From Psococerastis gibbosa (Eukaryota; Arthropoda; Insecta; Psocodea; Psocidae): DNA of 64,000 nucleotides. A program made the position numbers and the translations under genes. Position 1 is the first letter of the stretch; every line of letters begins with the position of its first letter. Location of the stretch: NCBI GenBank assembly GCA_963971405.1, contig OZ020484.1:14136001-14200000 (forward strand), read 5' to 3'. The notes beneath the pieces were generated by a model. The model did no database searches, was not told where the DNA came from, and was given only the letters and a program-made list of their open reading frames with translations. Shown in pieces: positions 307 to 56,607 of this stretch.

Positions 307-922
307 GGCGCCCATTCCATTGACCGGCCAGGGCTATTTACAAAAACGGTGACGTGGTAGCAGACATTCAAGACTTAGGTGGCATTGCAGAATGCAAATG
401 ACATTGACGGAAATTAGAATTTTTCTTTTTATAGAAATCTATTAAAATGTTTGTACTTAACATATCCCATGACGCCATTTTTTAATTTTAGTTTGTTTGT
501 TTATGATTTTACTGTATGATCAATTTTAACTATGGCATGGCCGGCCGCCATACCAAGTTGAATCTAGCGGACCGGAGCAGGTTCAAAGCTGCAGATAAAT
601 TGGTCGTGTGCACAGTGCCGGTAGGGAAACATGGTAGGACTTGTCCTGGTCACCTCCGAACTAATCGTGTGACTTGACTGTATTTCCCAAGTGGTTCGGA
701 ATCCACTATAATCAGGAGGTCCACTGGAGTCCTATGGGCCCACACCGTGGCCTGGGACTGTGTCAAACCATACTACTACTACTAACTATGGCATAGAGGA
801 AAATAAACATTTCCGTCAATTCTGCAATGCGAGGTCGGTGGAAACTCTGTCTAAGTCTTGAATGTCTGCTACCACTTCACTGTTTTTGTAAATAGCCCTA
901 GCCGGTCGATGGAATGAGCACC
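307..922. mobile_element. Palindromic Harbinger-like MITE (family H1), split by a SINE
   Basis: The ends are GGCGCCCATTCCATTGACCG and its inverse, here decayed to GGAATGAGCACC. The left flank is TTA and the right is TGA, a worn 3-bp duplication. The arms include the family marker GACGTGGTAGCAGACATTCA. The central loop holds the core TGTACTTAACATATCCCATG. A SINE occupies 539-783. Without it the element is about 360 bp. It has no coding capacity, so it is non-autonomous. Confidence 0.85.
539..783 (+). mobile_element. SINE-C inserted in a MITE, 11-bp target duplication
   Basis: The SINE is flanked by the direct repeat AACTATGGCAT at 528-538 and 784-794, which is MITE sequence, so the SINE arrived after the MITE. 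The head is GGCCGGCCGCCATACC, the B-box-like segment is GGTTCAAAGC, and the 3' tail is a short ACT repeat. The 3' part ('GTCAAACCATACTACTACT') differs from the tails of the copies at 24894 and 32835 although head and centre match. Target-primed insertion by a LINE partner is inferred. Confidence 0.9.
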
Positions 923-1562
923 TGAATAAGCCCCTTTACAAATTCTCTCAAAGTGAAATAAGCTGTCATTTTTAAACTTAACGACAAACCCGATGCCAAT
1001 CAGAAAGCCTTAAATGGAATCTGCCGGACAACCACCTAACATACGGTACAGTAGTTAGTCGAGATAAGACAACGAAAATGTACGGACAGCTGATGCCGCG
1101 ATGGTTCACCAGTCAGTCACTGATCCTAAAAATAATGTAATGAATAAACAATTACGAGAAATTCATCCTTGACGTTGTTCCAGGCTTGATTGACAAGCTT
1201 GATAATCTATAAAATAATAACCTCGACTCTTTGCCAGCGGCTGCTTTACGGTGATTTAAACAAGGAATTTACCATGGTTCTCCACTGTTTATGGATACTA
1301 TCATACCTGTATACAGACTGGAGCTTGTTTGAATTTTCGGAATCGTAGTTATCTGTACCGCCCTCCTACTACTGCCCATAATTTGTTGGTTTCTAGGTAA
1401 TTGTATATCATGCTGTAATTGCCTGCTAACAACTATCAATTAAGCATCAATTTAAGGTAGTTGCTTAGGACTTATGGGCGCTATTGACAATGTTTATTGG
1501 TGATTATGCTGTTCATATATATTTACAATAACGATTAAATTTCAAAGTGGACTCCATCATTT
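923..1562. other. Unassigned AT-rich DNA
   Basis: No ORF, RNA gene or repeat copy is recognised in this stretch. Confidence 0.5.
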
Positions 1563-1632
1563 TTTTAAAAGAACCGGTCCGAGTTTACTCGAACATGCTT
1601 TCCTATTTATCAATTAGTATAGGTATATGAGT
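1563..1632 (+). repeat. Dispersed repeat with AAAGAACCGG
   Basis: A ~65-bp unit starting AAAGAACCGGTCCGAGTTTA and running to about GTATAGGTA. Related units lie at 10416-10472 (directly before the LINE remnant) and at 56649-56700 (near the Penelope-like fragment). In two of the three copies the unit ends in ATAGGTA. The family is not recognised; it could be an untranslated or terminal part of a retroelement. Confidence 0.55.
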
Positions 1633-1637
1633 ACATG

Positions 1638-1756
1638 TATGTCGACATTGATGGCAAGGTTGTAGCGTGCTTGAACTTGTGTGAGTCTCTCTATGCCATA
1701 GCTTCGGAGACATGTCGTAACTCAACACTGGTACTAACCTACGGAGGCGACTGAAT
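1638..1756 (+). mobile_element. SINE-B (tRNA-like head), plus strand
   Basis: The segment GGCAAGGTTGTAGCGTGCTT fits a polymerase III A box, and TTCGGAGACATGTCGTAACT is the family's second conserved block. Other copies lie at 7035, 21694, 37848, 54043, 60093 and 62890. The 3' part ends near GGAGGCGACTGAA. A tRNA origin is inferred from the A-box spacing; cloverleaf pairing is poor. Confidence 0.75.
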
Positions 1757-2698
1757 TTCATTTAAAAAAATACTTGCAAATGGACGAAGAAACCTATCTG
1801 AAACTATTATGTCTGGTCACTCGTTAGTCGTTTCATTAATAGGTAGGCGGAAATGTCATTTGATGTTCTGGAATCGTCAGGAATCGTTCACAGTACGAAA
1901 TATCGTAAATTGAGAACTGATGTGTAACAAAAGTTCTCTGTTTTTCTTCAGGAGCTGCCACCCACGGTCAGTTTCATAGAAGCGTCAGCTGTCAGTTAAA
2001 CTGATCGTGTATGGTAGGTCTAAGTTTAAAAGACAGTGTAATTCCTTCCAGGTCCAGGTGTTGCTGTGGCAAATCAGAATCATTAGGTGCGAGCAGGTAA
2101 AACAATTTAGCCCGACCTTCATCTCCCTCAGCACCGCCTACAATTTAGGTTGGCTACGCCTACTGAACCAGAACAATTTGCAGCAAATGAAAGCGGCAAG
2201 AAATCAGGGGAAGGCGGTATGCAAGTTACGGAAGCAGTGGCGGTGAGCGTGTCGGACTAATTGCCTCTTCCTACACAGAATCGTGGCCCGGCGAAGCGCT
2301 ACTGCATCGCCTACTGTCGGGGTTTATTTACGAGGCAGGCTAACACCCAGGACAGTAGTACCTAGGTATCGCGGTGCAAATCGCGAGTCTCCACCTTAGG
2401 GTGTCACCAGCCTTCCCAGACTTTCGACTACCTTCTTTTTTCTTTTTAAGTTTTTGACTACTTGTTCTTTATGGAACGAATCACAACATTAATCTCTCCA
2501 ATTTGAGATGTAATATAGAAACCATTCATTCAAGGTCTTTAAATCAGTCTATAGCTGTCTTCGGCAACGACGTCCCCAGAGACACACCACTGTGTTCAAC
2601 AATGAGCCCAGTGGTCAAATTATCGCCTGCTAGTGAAGCCGGCAGATATGGTGCTCAGATGCTCAAGATTCCCTAATTTATACGAGCAGGGAGCTGAG
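1757..2698. other. Unassigned DNA
   Basis: Contains a 79-codon open frame at 2007-2246 that starts with ATG but matches no family I recognise and has no visible splice or promoter context. The stretch at 2260-2420 is somewhat richer in GC. Nothing else can be supported. Confidence 0.4.
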
Positions 2699-2702
2699 TT
2701 TT

Positions 2703-2810
2703 AACTGAAATTAGAGGACATAGAAAAAACTGAACTTAGTGGGTTTCGAACCCACAATCTACGCTGATCCGGGACATCGCCTTAGCCACTGAACCACAAG
2801 CATGTACAGT
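2703..2810 (-). mobile_element. tRNA-derived SINE-E, minus strand
   Basis: On the minus strand GGTTCAGTGGCTAAGGCGAT resembles a D arm/A box. GTGGGTTCGAAACCCAC forms a perfect 5-bp T stem with a seven-base loop. The anticodon stem and acceptor do not pair, so this is not a functional tRNA gene. The 3' end (2703-2730) matches the arms of the inverted structure at 27042. Confidence 0.65.
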
Positions 2811-2907
2811 GGCCTCTAAGCCCTCTACTGGTATCCTCTTATTGACAAGATTCGTATTGCTATCTAACCGAACAGGTCTGTGAGCTTACATTATTGCATA
2901 AAGGCAA

Positions 2908-3133
2908 GTCAAGACATGTAGCGTAGTGGTACAGACTCTGACTTTCACCCGAAAGGTTATTGGTTCGAGTCCCACACTTCCTACATTTTCTGGCCATGCT
3001 TCGGAGGACATGTAAAGCAGGCGGTCCCGGGCCTTCCTAGTAGAGTGTAAGAGAGGGCTTTATAGCCCTAACTCCGCTAGGTTGGCTTAGTAATAGAAAC
3101 AACAAAAAGTCCTTATTTATTTATTATTTACTT
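2908..3133 (+). mobile_element. SINE-D (tRNA-derived), 8-bp target duplication
   Basis: The A box GTAGCGTAGTGGTACAGACT and B box GGTTCGAGTCC are in the correct order, about 30 bases apart. The body contains GCTTCGGAGGACATGTAAAG, and the tail is AAAAAGTCC followed by TTATT repeats. The flanks carry AAAGGCAA at 2900-2907 and 3134-3141. This is the most abundant SINE in the window (other copies at 12752, 30140, 41731, 43672, 49151, 51593, 54200 and 54853). Confidence 0.92.
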
Positions 3134-3353
3134 AAAGGCAATGCTTTATTAAAAAGGCTGAACTCTCACTAAATATCTTTCAGGTTAAATTCAATAAAAT
3201 TCACGACAGGCAAAATTTCCCCGCAGGATTTGCATAAGAAAATAAATGATGATTTTAAACATGCTATAAACGTTCTAACATGCAGCATTTAAGCTAGGCT
3301 TGGTTGAAATTTCGTCTGAATGGGTACAGATTAACAGATTATATCGACTATAT

Positions 3354-3676
3354 CAGGGGTTCCAAAACTGTGGTCCATGGACCACTGGTAGTCCACAGAC
3401 ATATATCAGGTGGTCCACGGGCCAAAGTAAGAAATAAGAAAATAAAATAGCTGAGTGATTGGAAATTTGAAATAAAATACAGTAAATCTTGGCACTGAAC
3501 TATAAAATCCGACCGATACAAGTCGTAAACAGTTCATCAAATATTAGCACGTAATTGTAGTCACTAACTACTTGATCTTGGTCCTAGACTTTAAAGAGTT
3601 TCCTATCATAGCCATGGTGGTCCACGGAAAATCATAAAATAATCTAATTGTCCACGGACAAAAAAGTTTGGGACTA
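3354..3676. mobile_element. hAT-like non-autonomous element, degenerate
   Basis: The left end CAGGGGTTCCAAAACTGTGG and the right end AAAAGTTTGGGAC are inverted and typical of hAT-type MITEs; the last bases of the right end are lost. Internal GTGGTCCACGG motifs repeat in both orientations. No 8-bp duplication can be demonstrated. Confidence 0.6.
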
Positions 3677-3683
3677 AATAATT

Positions 3684-3995
3684 TATGTTCGCATGGAAAA
3701 AGATATGCGTATCAAACCAACTTAACAGACTCATCAAAATACGATGCCGTATAACAGACCTATCGCCTGCCCCCCGGATTGAGTAAATATTTTTCACACC
3801 AGAAGCGATGAGTTATACCAGACGGGACTTCCAAGTTTTAGCCAGAGTGAGAAGCGGATTAATAGCAAACACAGCAAAAATCCAAAGCAGAGATTAGCCT
3901 ACTGAACGTCTGTTTGAGCGTCCGAAAAAACCTGAATGAGTTGTTGCGCTAGAAGTAAAGGATGATTGTGAAACGTTAGGGATAAAATCAGTAGC
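3684..3995. other. Unassigned DNA
   Basis: No gene or repeat copy recognised. Confidence 0.5.
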
Positions 3996-3998
3996 TAA

Positions 3999-4397
3999 GG
4001 CGCCCATGCCATCGACCGGCTAGGGCTATTTACAAAAACAGTGACGTGGTAGCAGACATTCAAGACTTAGGCGGGGTTTACACCGACCTCGCATTGCAGA
4101 ATTGACGGAAATGTTTATTTTCCTCTATGCCATAGTTAAAATTGATCAATGATCATACAATAACAAACAAACATACTAAAATACTAACAAACAAACTAAA
4201 ATTAAAAAATGGCGTCATGGGATGTGTTAAGTACAAACATTTTAATAGATATCTATAAAAAGAAAAATTGTCATTTCCGTCAATGTCATTTGCATTCTGC
4301 AATGCGAGGTCGGTGGAAACGCCACCTAAGTCTTGAATGTCTGCTACCACGTCACCGTTTTTGTAAATAGCCCTAGCCGGACGGTGGAATGGGCGCC
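3999..4397. mobile_element. Palindromic MITE family H1
   Basis: The ends are GGCGCCCATGCCATCGACCG and GGTGGAATGGGCGCC. The flanks are TAA on the left and GAA on the right, one change from a perfect 3-bp duplication. Arms of about 120 bp surround an unpaired core with TTGATCAATGATCA. The 127-codon minus-strand frame inside it is element sequence, not a gene. Confidence 0.9.
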
Positions 4398-4885
4398 GAA
4401 GCCCCATTTCAAATGTGATGTGTCCAATGCTCGTGTTCCAGAATAGTTGAACCAACCGGCAACTGAGCACAGTGTGACGCGGAAAATGTAACAGAACAAG
4501 TCTGTATAGGCTGACTAATGCGAGAAAATTGCACAATATTAAAAGATTTGCTATTAACCGATTAATAACACACTATTATGCAAATGTACCTTTGCTTAAC
4601 CGCCTGCAAGGCGAGCTTCATTGCTATATACTTATAACGTCTTCTGCTATTTCTTTAATTGCGATTTTTCTCAGAATAGATTGGTAGGTAGGGGTATACG
4701 TATGCAAGTAGTAAGTGAAAGTTACAAGGTTGAAGCTTTCCACAGTTACTGTGCTTATGTTACTGGACCAATGGCTATATGAAGCGTGGAAATAAAAAGT
4801 TAGACAAGAAAATCATTAATTTGAGTTGTTACGATTTTTTATGCCATAATGCATGACATCATAATGTGACATTGCCATCTATTTA
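4398..4885. other. Unassigned AT-rich DNA
   Basis: No gene or recognised repeat. Confidence 0.5.
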
Positions 4886-5150
4886 CGCGGCAATTCCACC
4901 GGCGAATTTACTTCATTTGTGATTTGAGATTTTTTGTTTGTTTTGCTTTAAGGAGACTATTATGTAGATACTTAACTTATCTATTATGCATGAAGTTATA
5001 ATATGTTGCAGATATCATTAATAAGTCTACCATATTATAACTTAATGTAATATATATAAGTTAAGTATCTACATAATAGTCTCCTTAAAACAACGCCAAC
5101 CAAAAATCTCAAATCACAAATGAAGTAAATTCGCCGGTGGAATTGCCGCC
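4886..5150. mobile_element. Palindromic MITE family H3, TTA duplication
   Basis: The arms begin GGCAATTCCACCGGCGAATT and are nearly exact inverses for more than 60 bp; a second inner inverted pair is AAGGAGACTATTATGTAGAT. TTA flanks both sides (4883-4885, 5151-5153). The end plan GGCGGCAATTCCACC is the same plan as in families H1 and H2, with unrelated inner sequence. Confidence 0.85.
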
Positions 5151-5979
5151 TTACCAACTGCAACTACAATTTTGCCACTGTCGCTTGACGCTGTTTACGG
5201 AACACTGGCCATGTAACTTGGATCGTATTTAAGTGATGAAACGAATTTTCAATTTTTGGCGCTTAACGCGATTTCTATATCCACGCTTCATATTTCCTTT
5301 GGGTTACATATTATGAGGGGTAATGTCTGAAAGACCCAAAGTTTGGAAATGGGCTTATGAATAAGTGAAGTTATTACTTTATTAGAGGAACAATTAAAAT
5401 GTGCCTGTAATATGTACGATTCTATCAAGCACAATGTCAGTAGTTTACGGTAATTCCAATCAATGATTATGACAATGCTCCTGTCTGACTGAACCGTACA
5501 AAAATCCATACTGAAAAGTGAAAACTGATGAAATGATTATTATTGAATAGGCTATAGCATTTTATCATCAAGTTTAATTCCCTACCGAATATCTCTTGAA
5601 AATATACAGTACATACTATGCACAATATACAGTACCTAAGTTATGCGACTTATAATGGGTTAAAATCACAAATTATATATGAATAAATTGTGTAATCTGG
5701 GAACAGAAGGTAAGACATTTTCAATACAGCATAAATTTAGAACTTGCCTGCAAGTTTACAATAACATTCCTGATAGTTCCGCTCATCCTAACGTGTATTA
5801 AATTCGTATTATATATACAGTAAATATGAAATTTACGTTCCAACCAATATTAATACTATTTTAAGCAGACAAAACAGAATCGAGAAAACTTGTAAATATA
5901 ACAAGCCCCCCCTCCCCTGAAATATATCAGGACTCAATAGATTAAAATAGAATTTGAACGATAATTAGCAATTTTGTTA
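5151..5979. other. Unassigned AT-rich DNA
   Basis: Includes a 73-codon minus-strand frame at 5288-5509 without recognisable features. No repeat copies identified. Confidence 0.4.
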
Positions 5980-6362
5980 GGCTATTCCACTTGTCAATAT
6001 TTCTTCAATTTTGAAAATGTCATTGACAGAAATATCATCAACGTTGCATTTATATTTTTACACCTCATTCCACTTGTCTTCAATAATTTGATTGAACATT
6101 TTTGTTTACAATTTTTTCCAATTCTGTAAGTTTAACCCCCGTCTTTCTTTTACTTTTATAATCTAAAAGAAATTTAAATTATGAAATAATTAGTTTGTTC
6201 TCAAAAAATTAATTATAATTATTTATCATCTCCAGACGACGCTTATTATGACGATGATTATTGATCAATTCTAACATGCAGAAGTTAAAATGGACAATGA
6301 CATAAAGTAAAGAAAAAATCTCATCCATTATTGAAGAAAAATTGACAAGTGGAATAGCCGGC
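5980..6362. mobile_element. Palindromic MITE family H4, TTA flanks
   Basis: Left end GGCTATTCCACTTGTCAATA, right end ATTGACAAGTGGAATAGCC plus GGC. TTA lies at 5977-5979 and 6363-6365. The left end appears to lack three bases relative to the right. The interior has a TTATTGATCAATTCTAAC motif close to the H1 core, so it is a distant relative. Non-coding. Confidence 0.75.
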
Positions 6363-6773
6363 TTAAGAATAAACAATTTGAAACACATTAAAAAAAATTT
6401 ATGATTAGATGATTATAAAATTTTGTATTGTGATCGCGAATGACAGAGTATAGACTCAATGGTTTCCCTATCTCCAAATATATGACCTATCTATCTATCT
6501 ATATAGCCTATCTAAACATTGCTGCATTCAAAATTCATAAAACCTTAAACCCTATATTACAGGTCTATTTTTCAAAACTTTTCCGGGTGGTAGAATATTT
6601 CATCAACACCAGACTCGTACCAGTATCAAAATAGGTTAGAAAAGGGAACGTGAAAGGCCTCGAATGGTTAGTTACGGGAGGACAAGGGCGAAGGGGTGGG
6701 AATTCGGGTAGGGCCGGGTTATTCAGGGAGGTCGATATCTAATGCCCGAGGACATACTACAGCGCGCATGGCG

Positions 6774-6905
6774 TGACGTCATGCTTCATTCATGACTTCT
6801 CGGAATTCAGCGATCAACAACATACAGGTTGCCGGCAAGGCTCTGACGTCAGAGGAGTCAATAATAGTATATAATTGGCCTTTCTCTGTGCAAACTGTCA
6901 GAAAT
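6774..6905 (+). promoter_or_regulatory. Promoter-like module: two CREs, TATA box, initiator
   Basis: Two perfect CRE palindromes TGACGTCA lie at 6774-6781 and 6844-6851. TATATAAT lies at 6868-6875, and an initiator-like TCAGAA at 6898-6903, about 31 bases downstream of the TATA start. The order and spacing fit a cAMP/CREB-type inducible promoter firing to the right. The region is richer in GC than its surroundings. The downstream transcribed segment (6900-7025) has an ATG near 6964 opening a short frame that soon runs into SINE sequence, so the gene it would serve is unknown. Confidence 0.45.
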
Positions 6906-7034
6906 ATATTTACAAATACTTTCAAGGCCGCAGTCAGATAAGGAAGCAATTGAGTCCGGCTTGATGAGCCGTGGTCAATCTGAAAGCGTACTTCCAAACG
7001 TTTCGTCTTCAGTGTTATTTTTTTTTTTTAAAGG

Positions 7035-9250: not shown

Positions 9251-9254
9251 AGAC

Positions 9255-9411: not shown

Positions 9412-10235
9412 GGCGCTTGTTCCACCTGCGTCAATAGTCAATAGTAAATGTGGTATTGACGGACATTTCAATTTTACACTATGCCATAGTTAAAATTGAT
9501 CAATGATCATAGAGTAAAATCACGCGTTGCAAACACTAACAAACTAAAATGGCGTCATGGGATATGTACAAACATTTTATATTTTATTGTTTATAAAACA
9601 ATTTTCATCCATTAAACAGATCGGTGAAGGTCGATCTAAGGCGCCCATTCCATTGACCGGCCAGGGCTATTTCCAAAAACAGTGACGTGGTAGCAGACAT
9701 TCAAGACTTAGGTTGCGTTTCCACCGATCTCGCATTTCAGAATGCAAATGACATTGACGGAAATTAGAATTTTTCATTTTATAGAAATCTATTAAAATGT
9801 TTGTACTTAACATATCCCATGACGCCATTTTTTAATTTTAGTTTGTTTGTTTGTGATTTTACTGTATGATCATTGATCAATTTTAACTATGGCATAGAGG
9901 AAAATAAACCTTTCCGTCAATTCTGCAATGCGAGGTCGGTGGAAACGCCACCTAAGTCTTGAATGTCTGCTACCACGTCACCGTTTTTGGAAATAGCCCT
10001 AGCCGGTCAATGGAATGGGCGCCTTACTTCGGATCTCCTACTATTATTAGGTTTTATTAAAAATAATAAGTCTACGAAGAAAACAAATGCAAACAACTTT
10101 CAAAAATTTGGCGCATACGTCTCAATAGAAGAAAAGTGATCAATAGTTGAAGAAACAAGTGGAATGCAGTGTATCAATGAAAAATAGAATTGTCCACATT
10201 TACAATTGACTATTGACGTAGGTGAAACAAGCGTC
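9412..10235. mobile_element. Palindromic MITE family H2-long, host of a nested MITE
   Basis: Ends GGCGCTTGTTCCACCTGCGT and its inverse (GGTGAAACAAGCGTC). The flanks are ACA and ATA. The arms carry GTCAATAGTCAATAGTAAAT. The nearest relative is the uninterrupted copy at 40076-40551. The interruption at 9640-10023 is an H1 element; without it and its duplication the host is about 437 bp. Confidence 0.85.
9640..10023. mobile_element. Palindromic MITE H1 nested in H2-long; empty site known
   Basis: 384 bp between TAA (9637-9639) and TTA (10024-10026). The uninterrupted paralogue reads GATCTTACTTCGG (TTA at 40306-40308), so one TTA was present before insertion and the left copy has changed by one base. 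The arms share private variants: CCATTGACC opposite GGTCAATGG, and ATTTCCAAAAAC opposite GTTTTTGGAAAT. Confidence 0.93.
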
Positions 10236-21785: not shown

Positions 21786-21833
21786 AAAAGGTTTTACACT
21801 AGATGACTAGATGGAAATGAACTCGAACACAAA

Positions 21834-22204
21834 GGCGTCCATTCCACCGACCGGCTAGGGCTATTTACAAGGTAGCAGACATTCAAGACTTAGGCGGGGT
21901 TTCCACCGACCTCGCATTGCAGAATTGACGGAAATGTTTATTTTCCTCTATGCCATAGTTAAAATTGATCAATGATCATACAGTAAAATCACAAACAAAC
22001 AAACTAAAATTAAAGAATGGCGTCATGGGATATGTTAAGTACAAACATTTTAATAGATTTCTATAAAAAGAAAAATTCAAATTTCCGTCAATGTCATTTG
22101 CATTCTGCAATGCGAGGTCGGTGGAAGCGCCACCTAAGTCTTGAATGTCTGCTACCACGTCACCGTTTTGTAAATAGCCCTAGCTGGTCGGTGGAATGGG
22201 CGCC
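21834..22204. mobile_element. Palindromic MITE H1 with AAA duplication
   Basis: Ends GGCGTCCATTCCACCGACCG and GGTGGAATGGGCGCC, with AAA on both sides (21831-21833, 22205-22207). Lacks the AAAAACGGTGACGT part of the left arm, which the right arm retains. Confidence 0.88.
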
Positions 22205-27358: not shown

Positions 27359-27742
27359 GGCGCCCATTCCATTGACCGGCTAGGGCTATTTCCAACAACG
27401 GTGACGTGGTAGCAGACATTCAAGACTTAGGTAGCATTTCCACCGACCTCGCATTGCAGATTGCAAATGACATTGACGGAAATTAGAATTTTTCTTTTTA
27501 TAGAAATGTATTAAAATATTTGTCCTTAACATAACCCATGACGCCATTTTTTAATTTTAGTTTGTTTGTTTGTGATTTTACTGTATGATCATTGATCAAT
27601 TTTAACTATGGGATAGAGGAAAATAAACATTTCCGTCAATTCTGCAATGCGAGGTCGGTCGAAACGCCACCTAAGTCTTGAATGTCTGCTACCACGTCAC
27701 CGTTTTGGGAAATAGCCCTAGCCGGTCAATGGAATGGGCACC
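27359..27742. mobile_element. Palindromic MITE family H1
   Basis: 384 bp, the same length as the copies at 9640, 42819 and 48239. Ends GGCGCCCATTCCATTGACCG and GGTCAATGGAATGGGCACC. The flanks are TGT and TTA, a worn duplication. It shares the CATTGACC and ATTTCC variants with 9640, so the two are close relatives. Confidence 0.88.
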
Positions 27743-28157
27743 TTACGTAAAAGTGTCGAAAAGAGTTCGGCCCCACATAACAACGGCCGTTATCACAGTT
27801 ACGGGCCCAAGTTTAATCGATCAAGTTACACACACCTCGTTCCAAGCTTTGACAGATCAATAACTTTTGACAGTTTATTCCTCCTGTGATAGAGGGAGAA
27901 CGCGTGCTAAGTAAATGAGACTCCCACCGGGTGGTCCACTCCATATACCCAAGCTCAAGACTTTTTACAGTCAAGCCCGGGGCGAATGTTCTAGAAAAAA
28001 GATTATGATGACTTTTAATTGCTATCAAATTGCTTAGGATGTAATGAGTTTGTTCTTTCCCTGGATTCCCTTTATGAATACCTACAGTCCGATTTGCTCA
28101 ATTTAAATAATTTGTAATTTATATTTTTTATAGCATAGAATGCTAATGAAAATATAA
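27743..28157. other. Unassigned DNA
   Basis: No gene or repeat copy recognised. Confidence 0.45.
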
Positions 28158-34788: not shown

Positions 34789-34929
34789 GGCGGGGTTTCC
34801 ACATACGTCAATGGTCAATGAGAAATATGGTTTTGACGTGGTAGCAGAATTTTTGGTATGTCTTTAATGTCTGCTAAAACGTCAATTTCACATTTCTCAT
34901 TGACCATTGACGTATGTGGAAACCCCGCC
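34789..34929. mobile_element. 141-bp palindromic MITE family H2, GAA duplication
   Basis: Ends GGCGGGGTTTCCACATACGT and its inverse, GAA on both sides (34786-34788, 34930-34932). Both arms carry the private variant CAATGAGAAATATG / CATTTCTCATTG where the copy at 31707 has GGTAAA / TTTACC. The next bases (34950-35012) resemble a further MITE right end, GTGGAATATCCGCC. Confidence 0.92.
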
Positions 34930-35905: not shown

Positions 35906-36110
35906 TTGTATTTCTATAGTTTTTAGTCAAGTAGGTCAAAAGAGTACGACGTGAGTGTCGTAATGCTGGATAAGTGAACTGGGTGGGCTGGGTTGCTGCC
36001 AGCCGTGGATTGGCTAATGAGACATGTTCATTTGACCAGCACTCCTGTCGTCAGCTGTGATCAGTTCCAAGAAAATATAGACTAAACGCAAAATACAAAA
36101 ATTTATGTAA

Positions 36111-36500
36111 GGCGCATATTCCACCGACCTGCTAGTGCTAAATACAAATACGGTAACGTGGTAGCAGACATTCAAGACTTAGGCGGGGTTTCCACCGACC
36201 TCGCATTGCAGAATGCAAATGACATTGACGGAAATGTTTGTTTTCCTCTATGCCATAGTTAAAATTGATCAATGATCATAGAGTAAAATCACAAACAAAC
36301 TAAAATTAAAAAATGGCTTCATGGGATATGTTAAGTACAAACATTTTAATAGATTTCTATAAAAAGAAAAATTCAAATTTCCGTCAATGTCACTTGCATT
36401 CTGCAATGCGAGGTCGATGGAAACCCGCCTAAATCTTGAATGTCTGCTACCACGTCACCGTATTTGTATTTAGCACTAGCAGGTCGGTGGAATATGCGCC
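36111..36500. mobile_element. Palindromic MITE H1, GGCGCATATTCC subtype, TAA duplication
   Basis: TAA at 36108-36110 and 36501-36503. Ends GGCGCATATTCCACCGACCT and GGTGGAATATGCGCC. Private variants occur in both arms: CTGCTAGTGCTAAATAC opposite GTATTTAGCACTAGCAG. Subtype arms have AAATACAAATACGG instead of TATTTACAAAAACGG. Confidence 0.95.
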
Positions 36501-36503
36501 TAA

Positions 36504-36812: not shown

Positions 36813-36815
36813 TTA

Positions 36816-37190
36816 GGCGCCCATTCCACCGACCGGCAAGGGCTATTTACAAAAACGGTGACGTGGTAGCAGACATTCAATACTTTGGTGGCGTTCCACC
36901 GACCTCGCATTGCAGAATGCAAATGACATTGACGGAAATTAGAATTTTTCTTTTTATTGAAATCAATTAAAATGTTTGTACTTACCATATCCCATGACGC
37001 CATTTTTTAATTTTAGTTTGTGATTTTACTGTATGATCATTGATCAATTTTAACTATGGCATTGAGGACAATAAACATTTCCGTCAATTCTGCAATGCGA
37101 GGTCGATGGAAACCCCGCCTAAGTCTTGAATGTCTGCTACCACGTCACTGTTTTTGTAAATAGCCCTAGCCGGTCGGTGGAATGGGCGCC
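36816..37190. mobile_element. Palindromic MITE H1, TTA duplication
   Basis: TTA at 36813-36815 and 37191-37193. Ends GGCGCCCATTCCACCGACCG and its inverse. The inner left arm lacks part of GGCGGGGTTTCC. Confidence 0.95.
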
Positions 37191-37193
37191 TTA

Positions 37194-42813: not shown

Positions 42814-42818
42814 GCTAA

Positions 42819-43202
42819 GGCGCCCATTCCATAAACCGGCAAGGGCTATTTACAAAAACAGTGACGTGGTAGCAGACATTCAAGACTTAGGCGGGGTTTC
42901 CATTGACTTCGCATTGCAGAATCGACGGGCATGTTTATTTTCCTCTATGCCATAGTTAAAATTGATCAATGATCATACAGTAAAATCACAAACAAACAAA
43001 CTAAAATTAAAAAATGGCGTCATGGGATATGTTAAGTACAAACATTTTAATAGATTTCTATAAAAAGAAAAATTCCAATTTCCGTCAATGTCATTTGTAT
43101 TCTGCAATGCGAGGTCGACGGAAACGCCACCTAAGCCTTGAATGTCTGCTACCACGTCACCATTTTTGTAAATAGCCCTAGCCGGTCGGTGGAATGGGCG
43201 CG
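42819..43202. mobile_element. Inner palindromic MITE H1, TAA duplication
   Basis: 384 bp. TAA at 42816-42818 and 43203-43205. Ends GGCGCCCATTCCATAAACCG and GGTGGAATGGGCGCG. It sits in the right copy of the 9-bp duplication of the previous insert, so it is the youngest of the three layers. Confidence 0.93.
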
Positions 43203-43671
43203 TAAATACAAATACGGTGACGTGGTAACAGACATTCAAGACTTAGGCGGAGTTTCCATCGACCTCGCATTGCAGAATGCAAATGACATTGACGGAAATG
43301 TTTGTTTTTCTTTTTATAGAAATCTATTAAAATGTTTGTAATTAACACATCCCATGACGCAATTTTTTTTAAATTTTAGTTAGTTTGTCTGTGATTTTAC
43401 TCTATGATCATTTATCAATTTTAACTATGGCATAGAGTAAAACAAACATTTCCGTCAATGTCATTCTGCAATGCGAAGTCAGTGGAAACCCCGCCTAAGC
43501 CTCAAATGTCTGCTACCACATCACCGTATTTGTACTTAGCCCTAGCCGGTCGGTGGAAACCCCGCCTAAAGGGTGGAATCTTGAGGCAATACCCTTGTGT
43601 ACCGTAGTTAATATGTCGTTGAATGTATTAAAAATGTAAGGTCGGGTAATGTGAGATTAACTATTATAATG

Positions 43672-48235: not shown

Positions 48236-48238
48236 TTA

Positions 48239-48622
48239 GGCGCCCATTCCACCGACCGGCTAGGGCTATTTACAAAAACAGTGACGTGGTAGCAGACATT
48301 CAAGACTTAGGCGGGGTTACCATCGACCTCGCATTGCAGAATTGACGGAAATGTTTATTTTCCTCTATGCCATAGTTAAAATTGCTCAATGATCATACAG
48401 TAAAATCACAAACAAACAAACTAAAATTAAAAAATGGCGTCATGGGATATGTTAAGTACAAACATTTTAATAGATTTCTATAAAAAGAAAAATTCTAATT
48501 TCCGTCAATGTCATTTGCATTCTGCAATATGAGGTCGGTGGAAACGCCACCTAAGTCTTGAATGTCTGCTACCACGTCACCGTTTTTGTAAATAGCCCTA
48601 GCCGGTCGGTGGAGTTGGCGCC
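48239..48622. mobile_element. Palindromic MITE family H1
   Basis: 384 bp. Ends GGCGCCCATTCCACCGACCG and GGTGGAGTTGGCGCC. The flanks are TTA (48236-48238) and TAT. The right terminus has a change (AGTTGG for AATGGG). Confidence 0.9.
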
Positions 48623-48720
48623 TATGCGAGATTTACTATAATTTTTGTATTATTTGTATTAACTACTAGGGATATATGCAATGTCCAGTGTTTGTATAGT
48701 AATTAACGCTTCTGGTCCTG

Positions 48721-48889: not shown

Positions 48890-49150
48890 CTGGTGGGTTG
48901 AAAAATTTCGGCTTGTAATCCAGCCTACTGAAATAATAATCCACTGTTTTATTAATTTTTTTACACCAAATATGTGAAAAATAAATGATGGCTATGAAAA
49001 GTTATATGATATAGAGACGTGTGCGATATTTTGCGAAATAAAGTTAGAGCTTAGTGGATGCTAATCGCTACAAAAAAATATCATGTTGAAACCCAATTTT
49101 ATGCCTAATGCTACGGAAACCAGTGCAACATGATGTTGGCCGGGCATTTA

Positions 49151-49371: not shown

Positions 49372-49379
49372 GGCATTTA

Positions 49380-50109
49380 TACGTGTAGCCTATGTATTGT
49401 AAATTACATATAATACAGACATACTGACAGTAGAAGAAATAACGTGTATTAATGACGTAATAACATTAAAACATGTGTGAGTTCTATAGTTGGCATTCAA
49501 TCACCAATTTGTATGCACAGTAGATGTAGCAAAAGCCTAAAACCTCGAGCAGACATGTCGCAAAGTAATGGAAAACCTATGTTGGAGAAAAACAACTCAA
49601 AAGTGCGCTTCGCATACTTATTTATTTGTAAAACTGTTCCTACCATTCAGGATAGCGACTTGATCTTGTAAATGATGCGAAGTTAGCAGCAGGAAATCTG
49701 CATTTTGCACTATGCATACAAAGTAACAATCAAGGGGCAAGTTTTGTACTCAAACTTATTCAGAACGATTATGTCATAGAACTGAACTTTTTGACATGAC
49801 AACGTCTAATAAATCGATGAGCGTTGGCATGCACGAAAAGGGGTGACGCTCATCGGTGACGCTCATCCGTTATGCTCATCCGTTACACCGCATCATAGTG
49901 TGGTTTTCATTGCTTTTTGGAACAATTTATTTATTTATTTTTTAAATTAATTTTTATTTATTTTTTTTATAATTTTTTTTTTGGTTATGACGTTGTCACG
50001 TAAAACTTACATCCGTAAACCGACTTTACAGACAATCAATTTTTTTGTTTAAATATCCTATGTTAAATACCTATGCTATGTTAAATATGCTGTGTTAAAT
50101 ACAGTGGCA
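49380..50109. other. Unassigned DNA
   Basis: A short tandem (GTGACGCTCATC / GTTATGCTCATCC) lies at 49843-49885; a related segment occurs at 32010-32050, so 49785-50040 and 31940-32350 are probably two copies of an unnamed repeat (shared CTAATAAATCGATGAG, then GTAAACCGACTTTACA). Confidence 0.45.
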
Positions 50110-50114
50110 CCGAC

Positions 50115-50405
50115 TTAATTGTTTTTCAACGCCTGCTTTTTGCTTTCAGCAACCCTCTCAGCCTGGCGGGGGAGTGAGTCTGTTTCTTAACTTGAGGCAC
50201 CCTAAGGGCAGACTCCTTCAGTCCTTCACATCAGGGAGAAGGGGATTGACTGACAGGGTAGACCTCCTGATTATAGTGGATTCTGAACCACTTGGGAAAT
50301 ATAGTAAAGTCACTCGATTAATTCGGAGGTGACCAGGACTCGACACGCACTTTGACTTAAAGGTTAGTCTCAGCGCGTTGACATGTCCCTCCATGTTCCC
50401 CTGGC
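50115..50405 (-). mobile_element. SINE-C, minus strand, 5' truncated
   Basis: CAACGCCTGCTTTTTGC, TAACTTGAGGCACCCTAAGG and CCTGATTATAGTGGATTCTG match the copy at 32835 in order. The head beyond CCATGTTCCCCTGGCG is missing. Confidence 0.85.
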
Positions 50406-51592
50406 GCCGACTGTAGTTTACAAGCATTTACCGTACATAATGCAATCAGAGCACTGTTCTCATGTACAATGAGTGATTATTATTATTATTTATTGCTTCT
50501 CTAATTTCACATTTCACTATTTATTACATATTTTTATTTTTGAAACCTTGATTGAACAGTATCCTGCAAATGAAATTGAATGAAAAAAGTGTCGTTTTAC
50601 ACGTTGAATTCTTCCAATTTTACAAAATTGACAAAAAGGATGATTTTAACGTGTTATATAACTAATTTTCCGAGTTCTTGTGGCTTGGGAAATTACTACA
50701 CACAATATATCACGGATCAATTGAAGTCAATGTTGAATGCCTATATAAATAAATAAATAAATATGTAATAAATAATATATAGGCCTTTGTATGTAGGCTA
50801 CTGTTCTGTGATCCTACACTAATGACAGATTATGTAAATTGTATGTCAGCTTGCCAGCAGACAGCAGTGTCAGTCAACTATTATATTAAAAGACAGTGAT
50901 TGATATTGTTGATAAATAGAAAACAGCTTCAAAGTATGGTTTGGACATCTTCCTTCCATGCGACCACGGTAATTTAAACAAGGACTTGAACCAAAAAGCC
51001 TCTCCACTCATTACCATAAATGGAGCATAGAGCGGCGACAAACAAGTACCTGTACGATGGTAATTGTTAATGCTAAGACAGATGAAGATAAATAGCTTGT
51101 AGAGGCACAATTACCTGTAAATTTCCCATATACAGCTGTATATAGGAAACAGAAGAAGGTTATTGTTTGCCGTACAAAGTACCTCCATGCCAACCCACAG
51201 GCTACGACGCCATGTTATTCTATTTGTACTGCTGAGTTTACTGTTTATGGTTACATACTGATGGAAAATCGTTAAAAAAACTAAAACTTGGATTTTTGTA
51301 ACATAATATGTAGGGTCGTTGTCTTGAGTTTCTACTGTAATTAGGGCATACAATAATAAAATAATAAATAATTAAATAAGTGACTGTGCCCTAAGACCGG
51401 CCACCAGCTTACTATATGAAGAATAGGCTACTGTGCAATACTCGTCGAAAGTTTCACACTAAAATGGATAAAATGAAACGCAGCAACTTCTGCGTGGTGT
51501 TACGTGTTACTTATTAAAAATTTTCAATGCAATTATAGGTATTTTAATACCAAAAATATTAATGTACTATTTAACAATTATTAAAGTACAAT
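50406..51592. other. Unassigned DNA
   Basis: Overlapping minus-strand frames at 50886-51353 are not recognised. AAATA repeats at 50748-50764. Confidence 0.4.
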
Positions 51593-51814
51593 CAGGACAT
51601 GTAGAGTAGTGGCACAGACTTTCGCCCGAACGGTTGTTGGTTCGAATCCCATGCACACTTGCTACCTTTTCTCACCATGCTTCGGAGGATATGTAAAGCA
51701 GGTGATCCCAGGCTTTCCTAGTTGAGTGCAAAAGAGGACTATGAATCCTTAACTTCGCTAGGTTGGCTTAATAATAGAACAAAAAGTCAATATTTTTTTT
51801 TTTTTTTTTTTTGA
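51593..51814 (+). mobile_element. SINE-D, plus strand, long T tail
   Basis: AGGACATGTAGAGTAGTGGC (A box), GGTTGTTGGTTCGAATCCCA (B box), GCTTCGGAGGATATGTAAAG. Ends in AAAAAGTC and a T22 run. Confidence 0.92.
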
Positions 51815-51987
51815 AATTACATTAAATAACAAATATACAAAGTTCCCTATGCCTATCAAATTATCGTTGATTCAATTCCACCATACTTAAAACCACTCTT
51901 CTTGATTTCTTTTAGGATATTATTTTTATAGCAGAGAATGGATATACTTTAGGTACAGTACAATTAATATAAAAATCTCAACCTAGT

Positions 51988-52238
51988 CAGGCACGTAGCC
52001 AGGGAGGGGACTTTGGGGCTGAAGCCCCCCCCCAAATCTAAAAAATTGCATTGTTCAGTTTGATGTTTCACCTGTATTTTTTTTTTCTCAAAAACTTTTT
52101 CACTAAAACTGTGTTTTTGCATGTAAATTCTTAAAAATTTCCGGGGGCGGACCCGCCTTTTTACTGGGGGTATTCCATACCCCCCCCCACCCCTTGGTAC
52201 TTAGCCCCCTCCGAAGTAAAATCCTGGCTACGTGCTTG
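51988..52238. mobile_element. hAT-like MITE, perfect 8-bp duplication
   Basis: AACCTAGT at 51980-51987 and 52239-52246. Ends CAGGCACGTAGCCAGGG and CCTGGCTACGTGCTTG. Internal GGGGCTGAAGCCCCC hairpin and C10 tract. Non-coding. Confidence 0.93.
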
Positions 52239-52945
52239 AACCTAGTCCATTCACAATTTCCCGCACCCAACCTGAAACGAGATAATCTCATATATTAAGC
52301 AACTTTGTATATTTTAATCAGTTGTACATAGCTTTGCAGTAGACAAAATGCAAATTAATTGAAGTTTAAAAGTTTCTACGGAGTAACCTGTGGAGAATCG
52401 ATGAGACGAACAGTCAAACAAGTCTTACCAACTTGTACGTTTTGAAACAGATAAGATAACATCCTACGTAAGATACCTACTTAAAAATATGGTGAGTAGG
52501 TACTTTCCAAAGGGTAATTAGATCAGGAGTTAATCCCAGGGCTGTGCAATCATGTGGAAACCAACCTTATCTTTATATGCCGTGTCTCTCGTTTAAAACA
52601 ATTAACAAGTTAATTATCGGCGTATTTAATTTTGAAAACTGTTGGTCATAAGCCGCATTTCGGCATGTTCCTTTAGACAGGTACACTGCATTAATTTACG
52701 GTTTTTTCAACAAGGAACGACTCCTGAGAGCAAAGACGACGGCTTGTTTGGTTTATCGAGACAAAATTAATAATGCCATCAGGATTTGAGCAGATAGGTG
52801 AGCGGCAGCTTTATTTCGTTATTACCTTTAATCATTTTGATTAGGTTCAAAGAATGAAACCGCACCTCCATGTCTTTTTTAAGTAGGCTATTCATCATCA
52901 GTGAATTTTTTTGTTTTGGTAAAAAAAAGTCCGAAAAATACTTGC

Positions 52946-53018
52946 CTTTGGACGAAGCGCATGGTCATTGTTGTAGCCATACTCTCAATGGAACCAACAC
53001 TCATCATTGCGGACACCT
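52946..53018 (-). CDS. Possible 73-nt exon, ligand-gated-channel-like at best
   Basis: On the minus strand ATGTTCCAG|AG precedes and CCAAAG|GCAAGT follows; GCAAGT is the usual form of GC-AG donors. The only frame open throughout reads VSAMMSVGSIESMATTMTMR, then FVQRQ. The spacing of GSI to R-Q is faintly like the extracellular segment of Cys-loop anion channels ending in RQ-W, but the match is short and unverified. No flanking exons were identified. Confidence 0.22.
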
Positions 53019-54042
53019 CTGGAACATAAAACAACAAAAATAACATTATTGTGAATATATTGCAAACACTACTATAGAGTAGGCTATAATTACATTGGTA
53101 AGTTTGTAGGCAGGTATGGTACCTACTAGATAATAATTGGCCTTCAGGTAGTTCATGGCAGGAGGGGGGGGGGAAGCAATTTTATTTTATGATATGCATG
53201 TAAATTATAAATTATTATTTATAATTCATTATCCTTACCGTAGTTCATTCTATTATTATTATTATTATTATTTATTATTTTGTCCCAAATAAGTGCTAGC
53301 TTGGGGATGCGGGATGGTATTAATATGTATTGTAATTTTTGTAATATATGCTCCTCCTTGTCCAGGGAATACTGGACAAGGCAAAGAAAGAAAGGAAAAA
53401 GAAAGAAATGGCGCTGTGCTCGAACATGTGCTAGTAAACGACTGTTTTTCAATTCTTTTGGAATCGTACTGACGTCGTATTCATTTATTAAAAATTGACA
53501 TATTACGATAGGCATATGACATCTACAACTTTATATTGAACGTCATTGTAGTATAGGAAATACAAAAGTCTTAAAATCTATGGATTTCGATACAAATCTT
53601 AAAAAAATTTGTCTCAGTGTGTTGAACGTAGTAGACATGACAATTTTCTAAGAGGTTGTTTACTGTAGCTTTACTATGCAACTACACTATATTACCTATA
53701 CAATGTCCGATAAAATCCGTATGCAGTTGGCAGTTGTATTTATATTTTAATTTATTGTTAATAAAACAATTCTCCTCGAATATATCGTGTCTATATTAGT
53801 TTGTTTGTAAACTATTTCCGAGTTTTTCTGGTTAAGTTTGGCCCAGCGTTATACCAAAATATATTTTTTATTTAATTTAATGCCTGAGTTACGATTATTT
53901 GGTCTTTCCAAGCAGTAGAAGAGGACTATTTCATATATAGTACGATATAATATAAGCTTAAACTGATAGCTGGCAGAAATTTACCGAAATATAAAATTCA
54001 TGGCAGTACCTTGGCCTATTAAAAACTTAGCCAAATAAGTTC
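53019..54042. other. Unassigned DNA with TTA repeats and a short hairpin
   Basis: TTA repeats at 53250-53276. CCTTGTCCAG and its inverse CTGGACAAGG form a hairpin at 53355-53380; CTGGACAAGG recurs at 61185, so it belongs to a small repeat. Confidence 0.45.
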
Positions 54043-54198
54043 AGAATGGCTTCAATGGCAAGGTGGTAGCGTGCTTGTACTTGCGCGATTCTCTACACAC
54101 CTCGTGATCGGAGACGTGCGGAGTAACTAGACACAAGTGCTTATTAGGTTACTTAGTGAGACGACTGGAGAGGTCAATCGGATACATTTATTATCAAT
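54043..54198 (+). mobile_element. SINE-B, plus strand
   Basis: AATGGCAAGGTGGTAGCGTG (A box), GTGATCGGAGACGTGCGGAG, and the 3' part GAGGTCAATCGGATACATTT. Confidence 0.87.
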
Positions 54199-54199
54199 A

Positions 54200-54352
54200 A
54201 ATAAATATTTACTTTCTTGTTTTATTACTACGCCAACCAGTTGGGGCTATAAAGCCCTCTCTTACACTCAACTAAGAATACCCGCGACCGCCTGCTTTAC
54301 ACATCCTCCAAAGAATGGCCAGAAAATATAGCCAGTGTGGGACTGTCCTGAC
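54200..54352 (-). mobile_element. SINE-D, minus strand, internally shortened
   Basis: Lies directly against the 3' end of SINE-B. Lacks the CTAGCGGAGTTA part of the body (CCAACCAGTTGGGGCTAT) and the B box, ending GTGTGGGACTGTCCTG. Confidence 0.8.
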
Positions 54353-54718
54353 ACAAATTCTGATACTTGTATTAAATGGTCTGCATGAAATTAACATTAA
54401 AAAAGTGGCTGTTAAAAAAAATGACATTCATTTCCCATTTCTCTGATTATTGGCATATGCTGTACGCAGTAAACTGCGTACATTGATTGGTGTTGGACGT
54501 CATTTATGACGTTATCAAGCACGTAAGCATTGTAGAATTCAAGGGGTCGATAGGGAAGGGTGGGGAAAGGGCTGTGGAAATTTGACATTATCTACTATGT
54601 GACGAAAGCCCACTACGCACAGATTATTTTTAGATTGGGAAAAGCCGTTTTTCATTTCCGCAGTTTGGGCTTACAGTAATTCAAAATCAATAAGCAATTG
54701 CTGTCTTTTTTTTATCCA
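54353..54718. other. Unassigned DNA
   Basis: Nothing recognised. Confidence 0.45.
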
Positions 54719-54852
54719 GTTAGGTCGTAGACCCACTTGTAGTGGCTTACTGAACTTTGCCCTGTCAACGACCTCATCGATTTTTCAGACATTCATGGTA
54801 GCGTTAATTTTGGCCTCTGGCAAATTGGACCCCGTCCTTAACGTCAACGCAG
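54719..54852 (+). repeat. Repeat R, left copy
   Basis: GGTCGTAGACCCACTTGTAG, CTGTCAACGACCTCATCGAT and TTTTGGCCTCTGGCAAATTG recur in the same order at 55090-55215. The two copies flank a SINE-D. No protein family recognised. Confidence 0.75.
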
Positions 54853-55077
54853 ATTTATAAATAAATAAATAATAAATAAATGTTGACTCTTTTTGTTCTA
54901 TTACTAAGCCAACCTAGCGGAGTTAGGGCTATAAAGCCCCTTCTTACACTCAACTAGGAAAACCGCCTGTTTTACATGCCCTCCGAAGCATGGCCAGAAA
55001 ATGTAGCAAGTGTGAGACTCGAATCAGCAACCTTACGGGTGAAAGTTGGAGTCTGTAGCACTACTCTACATGTCCTG
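54853..55077 (-). mobile_element. SINE-D, minus strand
   Basis: AAATAAATAAT tail complement, CCTAGCGGAGTTAGGGCTAT body, ACTCGAATCAGCAACCTTAC B-box complement, CTACTCTACATGTCCTG head complement. Confidence 0.92.
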
Positions 55078-55089
55078 ACTGATTTAATT

Positions 55090-55213
55090 GCGGGTCGTAG
55101 ACCTACTTGTAATGGCTTTCTGAACCATGCTCTGTCAACGACCTCATCGATTTTTCAGACATTCGTTGTTTCGTTAATTTTGGCCCCTGGCAAATTGGTG
55201 GAGCCCGTCCTTA
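55090..55213 (+). repeat. Repeat R, right copy
   Basis: About 120 bases matching 54719-54840. Ends in CCCGTCCTTA, where the following palindromic element begins. Confidence 0.75.
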
Positions 55214-55375
55214 GACGGGTATTCCACATACGTCAATCGTCAATGAAAAATTGAAAAATGACGTTTTAGCAGACATTAAAGACATACTAAAAATTCTGCT
55301 ACCACGTCAATTTACGTCATTGTTACGTCATTTTTCAATTTTTCATTGACGATTGACGTATGTGGAATACCCGCA
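55214..55375. mobile_element. Palindromic MITE family H2, variant arms
   Basis: Left GACGGGTATTCCACATACGT, right inverse ACGTATGTGGAATACCCGC; arms CAATCGTCAATGAAAAATTG on both sides, a variant absent from other copies. The left flank is TTA; the right flank is altered. Confidence 0.85.
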
Positions 55376-56200
55376 GATTTGCTAGTTTGTCGTGTTAGAA
55401 ATGAACTTGAACTATATGTCAGAGGCACGTGTATCTTATTTTATATACCTTGACGAATAGAGACGCCACTTCATTCTGGATTTAAATTTATTATCCTGTA
55501 AATTCCATAACGCCACATCACAAAGCACTTTACAAACAAATTTGAGGTGCCTAAATTGCCCCTTATATTGCGTTCCATTCAATGCACTGTACACTAAATT
55601 TCATTTCGCCGTTTTTCTTCATATGAATAAGGAGAGGTAATCAGACTGATGGTGTCCACCTGAGTCTTCAGGTACAACCAGATAATATTGTCACCGGTGT
55701 TGCGGTTGGATCGCGATTCCTGGAAATGAATTGTAGATGGTGACTGACTTAGAATTCCAGTCCGAGTAAATTAGGTACGATGTTCCTTTCATAGATCTAA
55801 TCGGAGTCGATCGGTGATCCTGTTTTCGTCTGCTCTCAACTACAACCAATTCGGTCATAAATGTGTCGTCAATGTAATCATGCCTTCTCATTTAAATTGT
55901 GGCCATGTTGGCTTACGAAGGTGGTTCCTTGTTTAAGATTGCACCCAAACTAGCTTTGCAATCATCAACAATTCTTGTGATTTCGGTAAATTGGCTTTAC
56001 ACTGCACTTAAATAACTTATGCATTCGTAATTGGTTGGTTTTATTTTCCTCGTGAAACTCTTGTTATACACTTTATCATTTTCACATCATTTTTTCGGCA
56101 TTAAAAGAGATCATTTTTTGAAGACTATCTTTAAAAATGCGGTAATCCCTTTTAATTTCACAGCCTATATTCTCTAGATCGTCTACCTAATAGGAATTGG
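55376..56200. other. Unassigned DNA
   Basis: A 66-codon ATG frame on the minus strand (55691-55891) has protein-like composition (RRKQDHRSTPIRSMKGTSYL) but no splice sites or family match that I can see. Confidence 0.35.
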
Positions 56201-56203
56201 TAA

Positions 56204-56607
56204 GACAAATATTCCACCGACCGGCTAGGGCTAAATTCAAATACGGTGACGTGGTAGCAGACATTTAAGACTGGGGGGGGGGGGTTTCCACCGACCTCTC
56301 ATTGCAGAGTGCAAATGACATTGACGGAAATTTGAATTTTTCTTTTTATAGAAATCTATTAAAATGTTTGTACTTAACATATCCCATGACGCCATTTTTT
56401 AATTTTAGTTTGTTTGTTTGTTTGTGATTTTACTGTATGATCATTGATCAATTTTAACTAGGGAATAGAGGAAAATAAACATTTCCGTCAATGTCATTTG
56501 CATTCTGCAATGCGAGGTCGGTGGAACCCCCGCCTAAGTCATGAATGTCTGCTACCACGTCACCGTATTTGTATATTTAGCTTTAGCCGGTCGGTGGAAT
56601 ATGCGCC
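56204..56607. mobile_element. Palindromic MITE H1, GGCGCATATTCC subtype, TAA duplication
   Basis: TAA at 56201-56203 and 56608-56610. The left terminus is altered (GACAAATATTCCACCGACCG), the right is GGTGGAATATGCGCC. A G11 run replaces GGCGGGG of the inner arm. Confidence 0.9.

What the first reader, a model, noticed from the sequence alone, without database searches (positions are those of the whole stretch)
307..56607. Arms of each palindromic MITE carry the same private changes
In several H-family elements the two arms of one copy share variants absent from other copies: CTGCTAGTGC / GCACTAGCAG at 36111; CATTGACC with ATTTCC / GGAAAT with GGTCAATG at 9640; CAATGAGAAA / TTTCTCATTG at 34789; CAATCGTCAATG and its inverse at 55214; TATTCC / GGAATA at 36111. 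Independent mutation would make arms differ. Concerted change suggests hairpin-templated repair, copying of one arm onto the other, or formation of new copies from a single strand that folds on itself.
Basis: partly seen in the sequence, partly recalled or inferred. Interest (0 to 1): 0.78.

Follow-up and report, generated by a model that had tools for sequence, protein, structure and literature searches.

The report
Palindromic MITE arms share subfamily variants
The two halves of these hairpin-shaped jumping-gene copies share unusual letters because they descend from a few symmetric parent elements, not because each copy repairs one half from the other; rare swaps and copying between halves in parent elements are the likely reason the parents are symmetric.

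Summary
The shared variants are real but not private. Three were counted in the 409 Mb genome: 634, 1143 and 1498 exact hits; 48, 60 and 56 of the first 100 listed places form opposite-strand pairs. In 152 H-family copies, own left and right arms are twice as alike as random ones (0.055 against 0.106), but inside a subfamily the advantage disappears; the proposed arm tree gives 3 own-partner cherries of 85. Changes carried by one copy are one-sided in 305 of 306 cases. So hairpin repair of resident copies, and obligatory birth from a self-folded strand, are not supported. What remains: source lineages change symmetrically, with 15 outer-arm column changes alike in both arms along a seven-step path drawn by eye, against 7 one-sided. 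A three-site arm haplotype (X) shows arm traffic: usually in the right arm, but in the left arm in 16 exact cases genome-wide, 3 of which have it in both arms (one as a patch). Likeliest mechanism: rare arm-to-arm recombination (flipped core, tract copying), visible only when the altered copy becomes a source. Bacterial ISWpi1 is a published precedent (PMC3004938, passages read).

The parts
36110..36501 (+). H copy, subfamily A (GGCGCATATTCC, TGCTAGTGC in both arms); TAA on both sides; coordinates include one flank base at each end
9639..10024 (-). H copy, subfamily S2 (CATTGACC, ATTTCC in both arms; right arm of X haplotype); coordinates include one flank base at each end
3998..4397 (+). H copy, subfamily S1
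21833..22204 (+). H copy with a gap in the left arm (dropped from the 152-copy count)
27359..27743 (-). H copy, filed as S2
36815..37191 (-). H copy, subfamily S1
42818..43201 (+). H copy, subfamily S1, directly followed by the next copy
43203..43558 (-). H copy with a GG-type end, one arm end truncated (dropped from the count)
48238..48623 (+). H copy, subfamily S1
56209..56608 (-). H copy, subfamily B (ATATTCC ends)
306..923 (.). H copy interrupted by other repeat sequence; no core with both arms found, not counted
34789..34929 (+). Shorter palindromic MITE of another family; outer arms symmetric, inner arms mostly not (read by eye in 17 fetched copies, 3 with one exact arm only)
55216..55373 (+). 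Third palindromic family; 49-bp arms fully complementary

Best explanation
H is a high-copy palindromic MITE of PIF/Harbinger type. Its copies fall into a handful of subfamilies, each stemming from a source element whose outer arms were already symmetric. After insertion the arms drift independently (shown). In source lineages, variants pass from arm to arm by rare recombination between the two inverted arms, or between copies lying in opposite core orientation. This flips the core relative to the arms or overwrites one arm with a tract of tens of bases (arm movement shown, recombination route inferred). Copies with two matching functional ends then amplify best, which would explain why symmetry is kept in the outer 60 bp and lost further in (inferred).
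For: Within subfamilies own left-right distance is not smaller than that to other copies (A 0.0381/0.0378, B 0.0502/0.0476, C 0.0405/0.0423 with permutation p 0.17, S1 0.0641/0.0610, S2 0.0637/0.0589, S3 0.0421/0.0418, Hy 0.0608/0.0601). Private changes 1 symmetric, 305 one-sided over 151 of 152 copies; in the least selected part (54 copies of the core list) 0 and 95. Along a subfamily path drawn by eye, 15 outer column changes are alike in both arms, 7 one-sided; all 8 inner-arm changes are one-sided. A half-changed source exists: Hy, left arm of S2 type, right arm near S1, 8 of 152 copies. X haplotype (A43, T76, T90): its T76-T90 part has 942 exact hits; of the first 100 listed, 98 read on into right-arm sequence, 1 into the left-arm gap, 1 unclear. 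The 37-bp left-context pattern has 16 exact hits. Of these 16, the right arm lacks X in 12, carries X in 3 (L102, L187, L193), is not readable in 1 (L191). C37 on the right arm is shared by 8 of those 12 and by 4 further sampled copies, so one flipped lineage amplified. L187 has C37 and A43 in both arms, a mixture of the two arm types.
Against: X may have moved by recombination between copies rather than inside one copy; cores of the X|X copies L102 and L113 differ and carry variants of several backgrounds, so the route is open. Arm-homogenised copies are rare: 3 of 16 exact left-context hits, against 942 X arms (exact matches only). In S1 and S2 own arms are even slightly less alike than arms of different copies (0.986 and 0.998 of shuffles at or below the observed mean), which I do not explain. 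T4 is a CpG-type transition that seems to recur, so it is a weak marker. No autonomous element or transposase was tied to H, so selection on ends is untested.
Confidence: 0.7

Rival explanations
1. Hairpin or cruciform repair in resident copies copies one arm onto the other after insertion.
For: The 36110 copy folds into an almost unbroken stem as single-stranded DNA, z -33.7 against 100 shuffles; L026 has T61 in both arms; L187 has the same base in both arms at every readable marker.
Against: 305 of 306 private changes one-sided; T61 50 hits, no pair in the full list; 3 of 85 own-partner cherries.
Confidence: 0.05
2. New copies form from one strand folded on itself, so each new copy is self-templated.
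For: Left and right consensus arms are identical over all 126 columns within each of the subfamilies A, B and C.
Against: S-lineage copies inherit arm differences: the left-arm 11-bp gap is in 48 of 48 S2 copies and, in the left arm only, in 28 of 33 S1 copies (4 have no gap there, 1 has it in both arms, column 104); X reads into right-arm sequence in 98 of 100 listed places.
Confidence: 0.04
3. No copying at all: selection for two ends recognised by the same transposase picks, from many thousands of arms, copies that happen to carry the same change twice.
For: Symmetric source changes lie in columns 6-55; the inner copy of the same end motif (columns 72-92) changes on one side only; private mutation is not concentrated in the outer arm.
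Against: Identical two- and three-base blocks in both arms (15-16, 32-33, 7-9), when only 18 of 392 private runs are longer than one base; the X haplotype moved between arms although it is not terminal.
Confidence: 0.17
4. Homogenised copies arise only by crossing over between unflipped and flipped copies inside the core, never within one copy (a special form of the best explanation).
For: A flipped lineage exists (12 copies with C37); cores of the X|X copies L102 and L113 carry variants of different backgrounds.
Against: L187 carries C37 and A43 in both arms, which needs patches from both arms; core markers include a slippage-prone CAAA run.
Confidence: 0.3

Closest known systems
TIR-TIR recombination with inversion and conversion in ISWpi1, IS5 family (Ling and Cordaux 2010, PMC3004938; passages read)
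   Same: Target T(T/A)A; inversion of the interior relative to the ends; ends made identical by conversion; 2 of 22 loci
   Different: Bacterial IS with 23-bp ends seen at allelic loci; here arms of 126 bp, a eukaryotic non-coding element, and the flipped form went on to amplify
PIF/Harbinger-like elements and their MITEs (PMC2213677, passages read)
   Same: 3-bp TTA/TAA target duplication, ends mostly starting GG, short derivatives
   Different: Long palindromic arms with a second copy of the end motif inside; no partner transposase identified here
REPINs (PMC3116915; passages read)
   Different: Bacterial, invariant 16-mers 71 bp apart, linked to RAYT transposases; changes there read as selection for hairpin formation

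Membership tests
PIF/Harbinger-type MITE | 3-bp TWA target site duplication | tested here: met
   144 distinct flank pairs: 85 identical 3-mers, 67 of them TAA/TAA or TTA/TTA; 34 differ at the middle base only; identity expected from flank composition alone 44 of 146
PIF/Harbinger-type MITE | Terminal inverted repeats beginning GG | tested here: met
   GGCG or GGTG ends in the subfamily consensuses
PIF/Harbinger-type MITE | Short, non-coding, high copy | tested here: met
   about 390 bp; arm 24-mer 7159+7225 exact hits; none of the 2 window ORFs of 150 aa or more overlaps an H copy
PIF/Harbinger-type MITE | Shares ends with an autonomous element of the genome | tested here: inconclusive
   PF13359 transposases abundant (150 scored), but the end-like palindrome beside one family is a nested MITE carried by all ten fetched copies; three other loci (L162-L164) show no such ends in the 6.5-8.5 kb read
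TIR-TIR exchange as in ISWpi1 | Core flipped relative to the arms | tested here: met
   X arm on the side of the 11-bp gap, 12 copies sharing C37 on the other arm
TIR-TIR exchange as in ISWpi1 | Arms made identical at markers that differ in relatives | tested here: met
   L102, L113, L187
TIR-TIR exchange as in ISWpi1 | Same locus seen before and after | not testable with these tools
   one genome only

The most novel reading that the evidence does not exclude
Source elements are made symmetric by mismatch repair of a folded element at the moment of transposition. The middle base of the TWA target duplication, the one position at which a direct duplication leaves a W:W mismatch at the foot of the hairpin, is a pairing one in 29 of the 96 copies with TWA on both sides, as a trace of the same event.
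Probability: 0.08. Interest if true: 0.65.

Novelty: new member of a known kind. Interest (0 to 1): 0.4.

Why it matters
It separates two things that look alike in a sequence: concerted change inside every copy (not seen) and concerted change in the few elements that breed (seen). With hundreds to thousands of arms per subfamily and arm haplotypes that can be followed, this family would let one measure how often inverted repeats exchange sequence in a eukaryotic germ line and whether matching ends are selected.

Tried and rejected
Hunt for H's transposase: the 157-bp palindrome next to a PF13359 gene looked like an element end but lies inside conserved flanks in all ten fetched copies, so it is a carried insertion. 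Idea that H's outer arms came from a separate 'outer-only' element: the short copy L165 still contains the inner motif, no support. Flank discordance as a sign of arm exchange between copies: rejected, because copies with arms or ends of two types are few apart from the Hy lineage. First private-change test left out subfamilies under five copies; repeated with these pooled, one copy (L106) still untested. That test uses only columns where left and right consensus agree, so it cannot see traffic of the X haplotype; fill this. The sample over-represents flipped copies because its query was the 9639 copy; genome-wide they are 16 exact hits against 942 X arms. Genome-wide TT/TT end counts did not complete and were dropped. 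The subfamily path was drawn by eye from consensus, not inferred by a tree program; core columns 136, 172 and 270 change back and forth along it, so it is not the only possible path. Literature: in the listings of seven searches I saw no report of arm-to-arm traffic in a eukaryotic MITE; I read passages of four papers (PMC3116915, PMC4561436, PMC2213677, PMC3004938), PMC2872659 held none of the terms sought, and subscription papers are mostly not held. The teleost 'Angel' hairpin-amplification model (Izsvak and colleagues, 1999) is recalled, not read.
Full report
What is there. The H family is a palindromic element of about 390 bp: two arms (126 alignment columns) around a core of about 145 bp. 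The window holds eleven copies, one of them interrupted; eight are complete enough for counting. Each arm holds the end motif GGCG-N4-TTCCA(CC/TT)GACC at columns 2-20 and a close copy at columns 72-92. The arm 24-mer GGTAGCAGACATTCAAGACTTAGG occurs 7159 times forward and 7225 times reverse. Flanks are mostly TTA or TAA, the 3-mers being identical on both sides in 85 of 144 distinct flank pairs (44 of 146 expected from composition), so I file H as a PIF/Harbinger-type MITE. The 36110 copy folds as single-stranded DNA into a nearly unbroken stem.

The observation. All quoted variants are present in both arms where stated. They are not private. Exact genome counts are 634 for the 36110 variant, 1143 for the 34789 variant and 1498 for the 55214 variant. 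Of the first 100 listed places, 48, 60 and 56 lie in opposite-strand pairs at element distance (counted by hand). The 9640 variant was counted only in the sample. The 34789 and 55214 elements are separate families that behave alike.

The proposed test. I fetched copies from four sources: the best hits of two copies, the list of one variant and the unselected 24-mer list (60 of about 72 elements, grouped by hand). 166 cores were found, 160 with both arms; two duplicates of window copies were removed, and of the 158 left, 152 had at least 60 of the first 70 columns in each arm: 54 from the 24-mer list, 38, 33, 19 from the list, 8 from the window. Over all copies, own left-right distance is 0.0546 and random left-right distance 0.1058. 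Inside each subfamily the two are about equal, or own is slightly larger (S1 and S2, where 0.986 and 0.998 of shuffles lie at or below the observed mean, a result I do not explain). The 304-arm tree has 85 cherries, of which 3 join arms of one copy; 30 join a left and a right arm, 32 two right and 23 two left arms. The subfamily therefore explains the sharing.

Private changes. Using columns where left and right consensus of a subfamily agree, changes carried by one copy are symmetric in 1 case (L026, T61) and one-sided in 305; carried by two copies 2 and 112; by three to five 6 and 119; by more 14 and 92 (151 of 152 copies). The symmetric cases above one copy sit at columns 6, 9, 21, 27 and 55 of the GG-ended pool, where small subfamilies were lumped, and at columns 86 and 90 of S1, where shuffling partners gives 2.2 against 4 observed. 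T61 has 50 exact hits in the genome; the list is complete and holds no opposite-strand pair, while 56 of 100 listed places of the normal 24-mer are paired. The exact pattern misses pairs whose second arm has a further change, as in L026 itself. Resident arms thus drift apart on their own.

Source lineages. Left and right consensus arms are identical over 126 columns within each of A, B and C. Along the path B-S1, B-A, A-C, C-Ca, S1-Hy, Hy-S2, S2-S3, there are 15 outer-arm column changes to the same base in both arms and 7 in one arm; in the inner arm 8 of 8 are one-sided; the core has 13 substitutions, none of them between S1, Hy and S2. The path was laid by eye, and four of the seven outer one-sided changes are two halves of symmetric ones (columns 16 and 35 change in the left arm on S1-Hy and in the right arm on Hy-S2). 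Hy, with 8 of 152 copies, is thus a source caught with one arm changed. Private mutation does not pile up in the outer arm (0.007-0.021 per site per ten-column bin, bins 1-10 and 71-80 highest).

Arm traffic. In S2 the right arm usually carries A43, T76 and T90 (X) and the left arm none of them. The T76-T90 part of X occurs 942 times; of the first 100 listed places 98 read on into right-arm sequence, 1 into the left-arm gap and 1 is unclear. The left-context pattern has 16 exact hits. I have read all 16 (13 fetched, 3 already held): the right arm lacks X in 12, carries X in 3 (L102, L187, and L193, whose left arm is a mosaic with T4 and G43), and is unreadable in L191. Eight of the 12, and four further copies in the sample, share C37 on the right arm, so a flipped element became a source. 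L187 has C37 and A43 in both arms. L113 is a further X|X copy outside the exact pattern. Because the left-arm gap stays with the core, the exchange point lies between columns 90 and 104.

How it most likely works. Shown: independent drift after insertion, symmetric change in sources, movement of a three-site haplotype from arm to arm, a flipped lineage. Inferred: the movement is recombination between the inverted arms of one element or between copies in opposite core orientation; symmetric ends are kept because both must suit one transposase. The second inference fits the fact that the inner copy of the same motif changes on one side only, but no transposase was tied to H: PF13359 genes are plentiful (150 scored), the one end-like palindrome next to such a gene is a carried insertion, and three other gene loci show no H-like ends in the stretch read.

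Comparison. Ling and Cordaux (PMC3004938; passages read) found inversion of ISWpi1 with one end copied onto the other at 2 of 22 loci, in an element with T(T/A)A targets. H works like that, with longer arms, in a eukaryote, and with a flipped form that amplified; that it is the same mechanism cannot be proved without before-and-after loci.

Left open. In 34 of 144 flank pairs only the middle base of the target duplication differs, against 5 for the first and 9 for the third base; 29 of the 96 pairs with TWA on both sides are TAA/TTA or the reverse. Point mutation spread evenly over the three bases does not explain this. Either the element carries bases of its old site along, or the hairpin foot is repaired; I cannot tell which.

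Noticed in passing
flanks of 144 H copies, e.g. window 9637-9639 (TAA) and 10024-10026 (TTA): Target duplications disagree at the middle base only in 34 of 144 pairs (first base only 5, third base only 9); 29 are A on one side and T on the other. A direct TWA duplication leaves exactly this base unpaired in the hairpin.
   Followed up: partly
H arms, columns 72-92: A near copy of the terminal motif lies inside each arm, preceded by CTTA in both arms, so its flanks are inverted and not a direct duplication; the element looks layered.
   Followed up: partly
window 9412-10232 (approximate): Another MITE with much the same core (CTATGCCATAGTTAAAATTGATCAATGATCAT...) but different arms contains the 9639 H copy: one core, two arm sets.
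   Followed up: no
L151-L160 and L161 778-934: A 157-bp MITE of the 55214 family sits at the same place beside a PF13359 transposase gene in all ten fetched copies, so it travels as a passenger of a larger repeat.
   Followed up: yes
L162 70-645 and 3977-5062: An ORF that looks like a YqaJ-type nuclease (recalled resemblance, not tested) lies a few kb from the PF13359 transposase ORF.
   Followed up: no
window 131-775: A separate inverted repeat (arms 131-272 and 540-681) is interleaved with the interrupted H copy at 306-923.
   Followed up: no
L028, L104, L145: Single arms with the end GGCGCTTATTCC, found on one side only, in copies filed under two subfamilies: block change of the end in one arm.
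   Followed up: no
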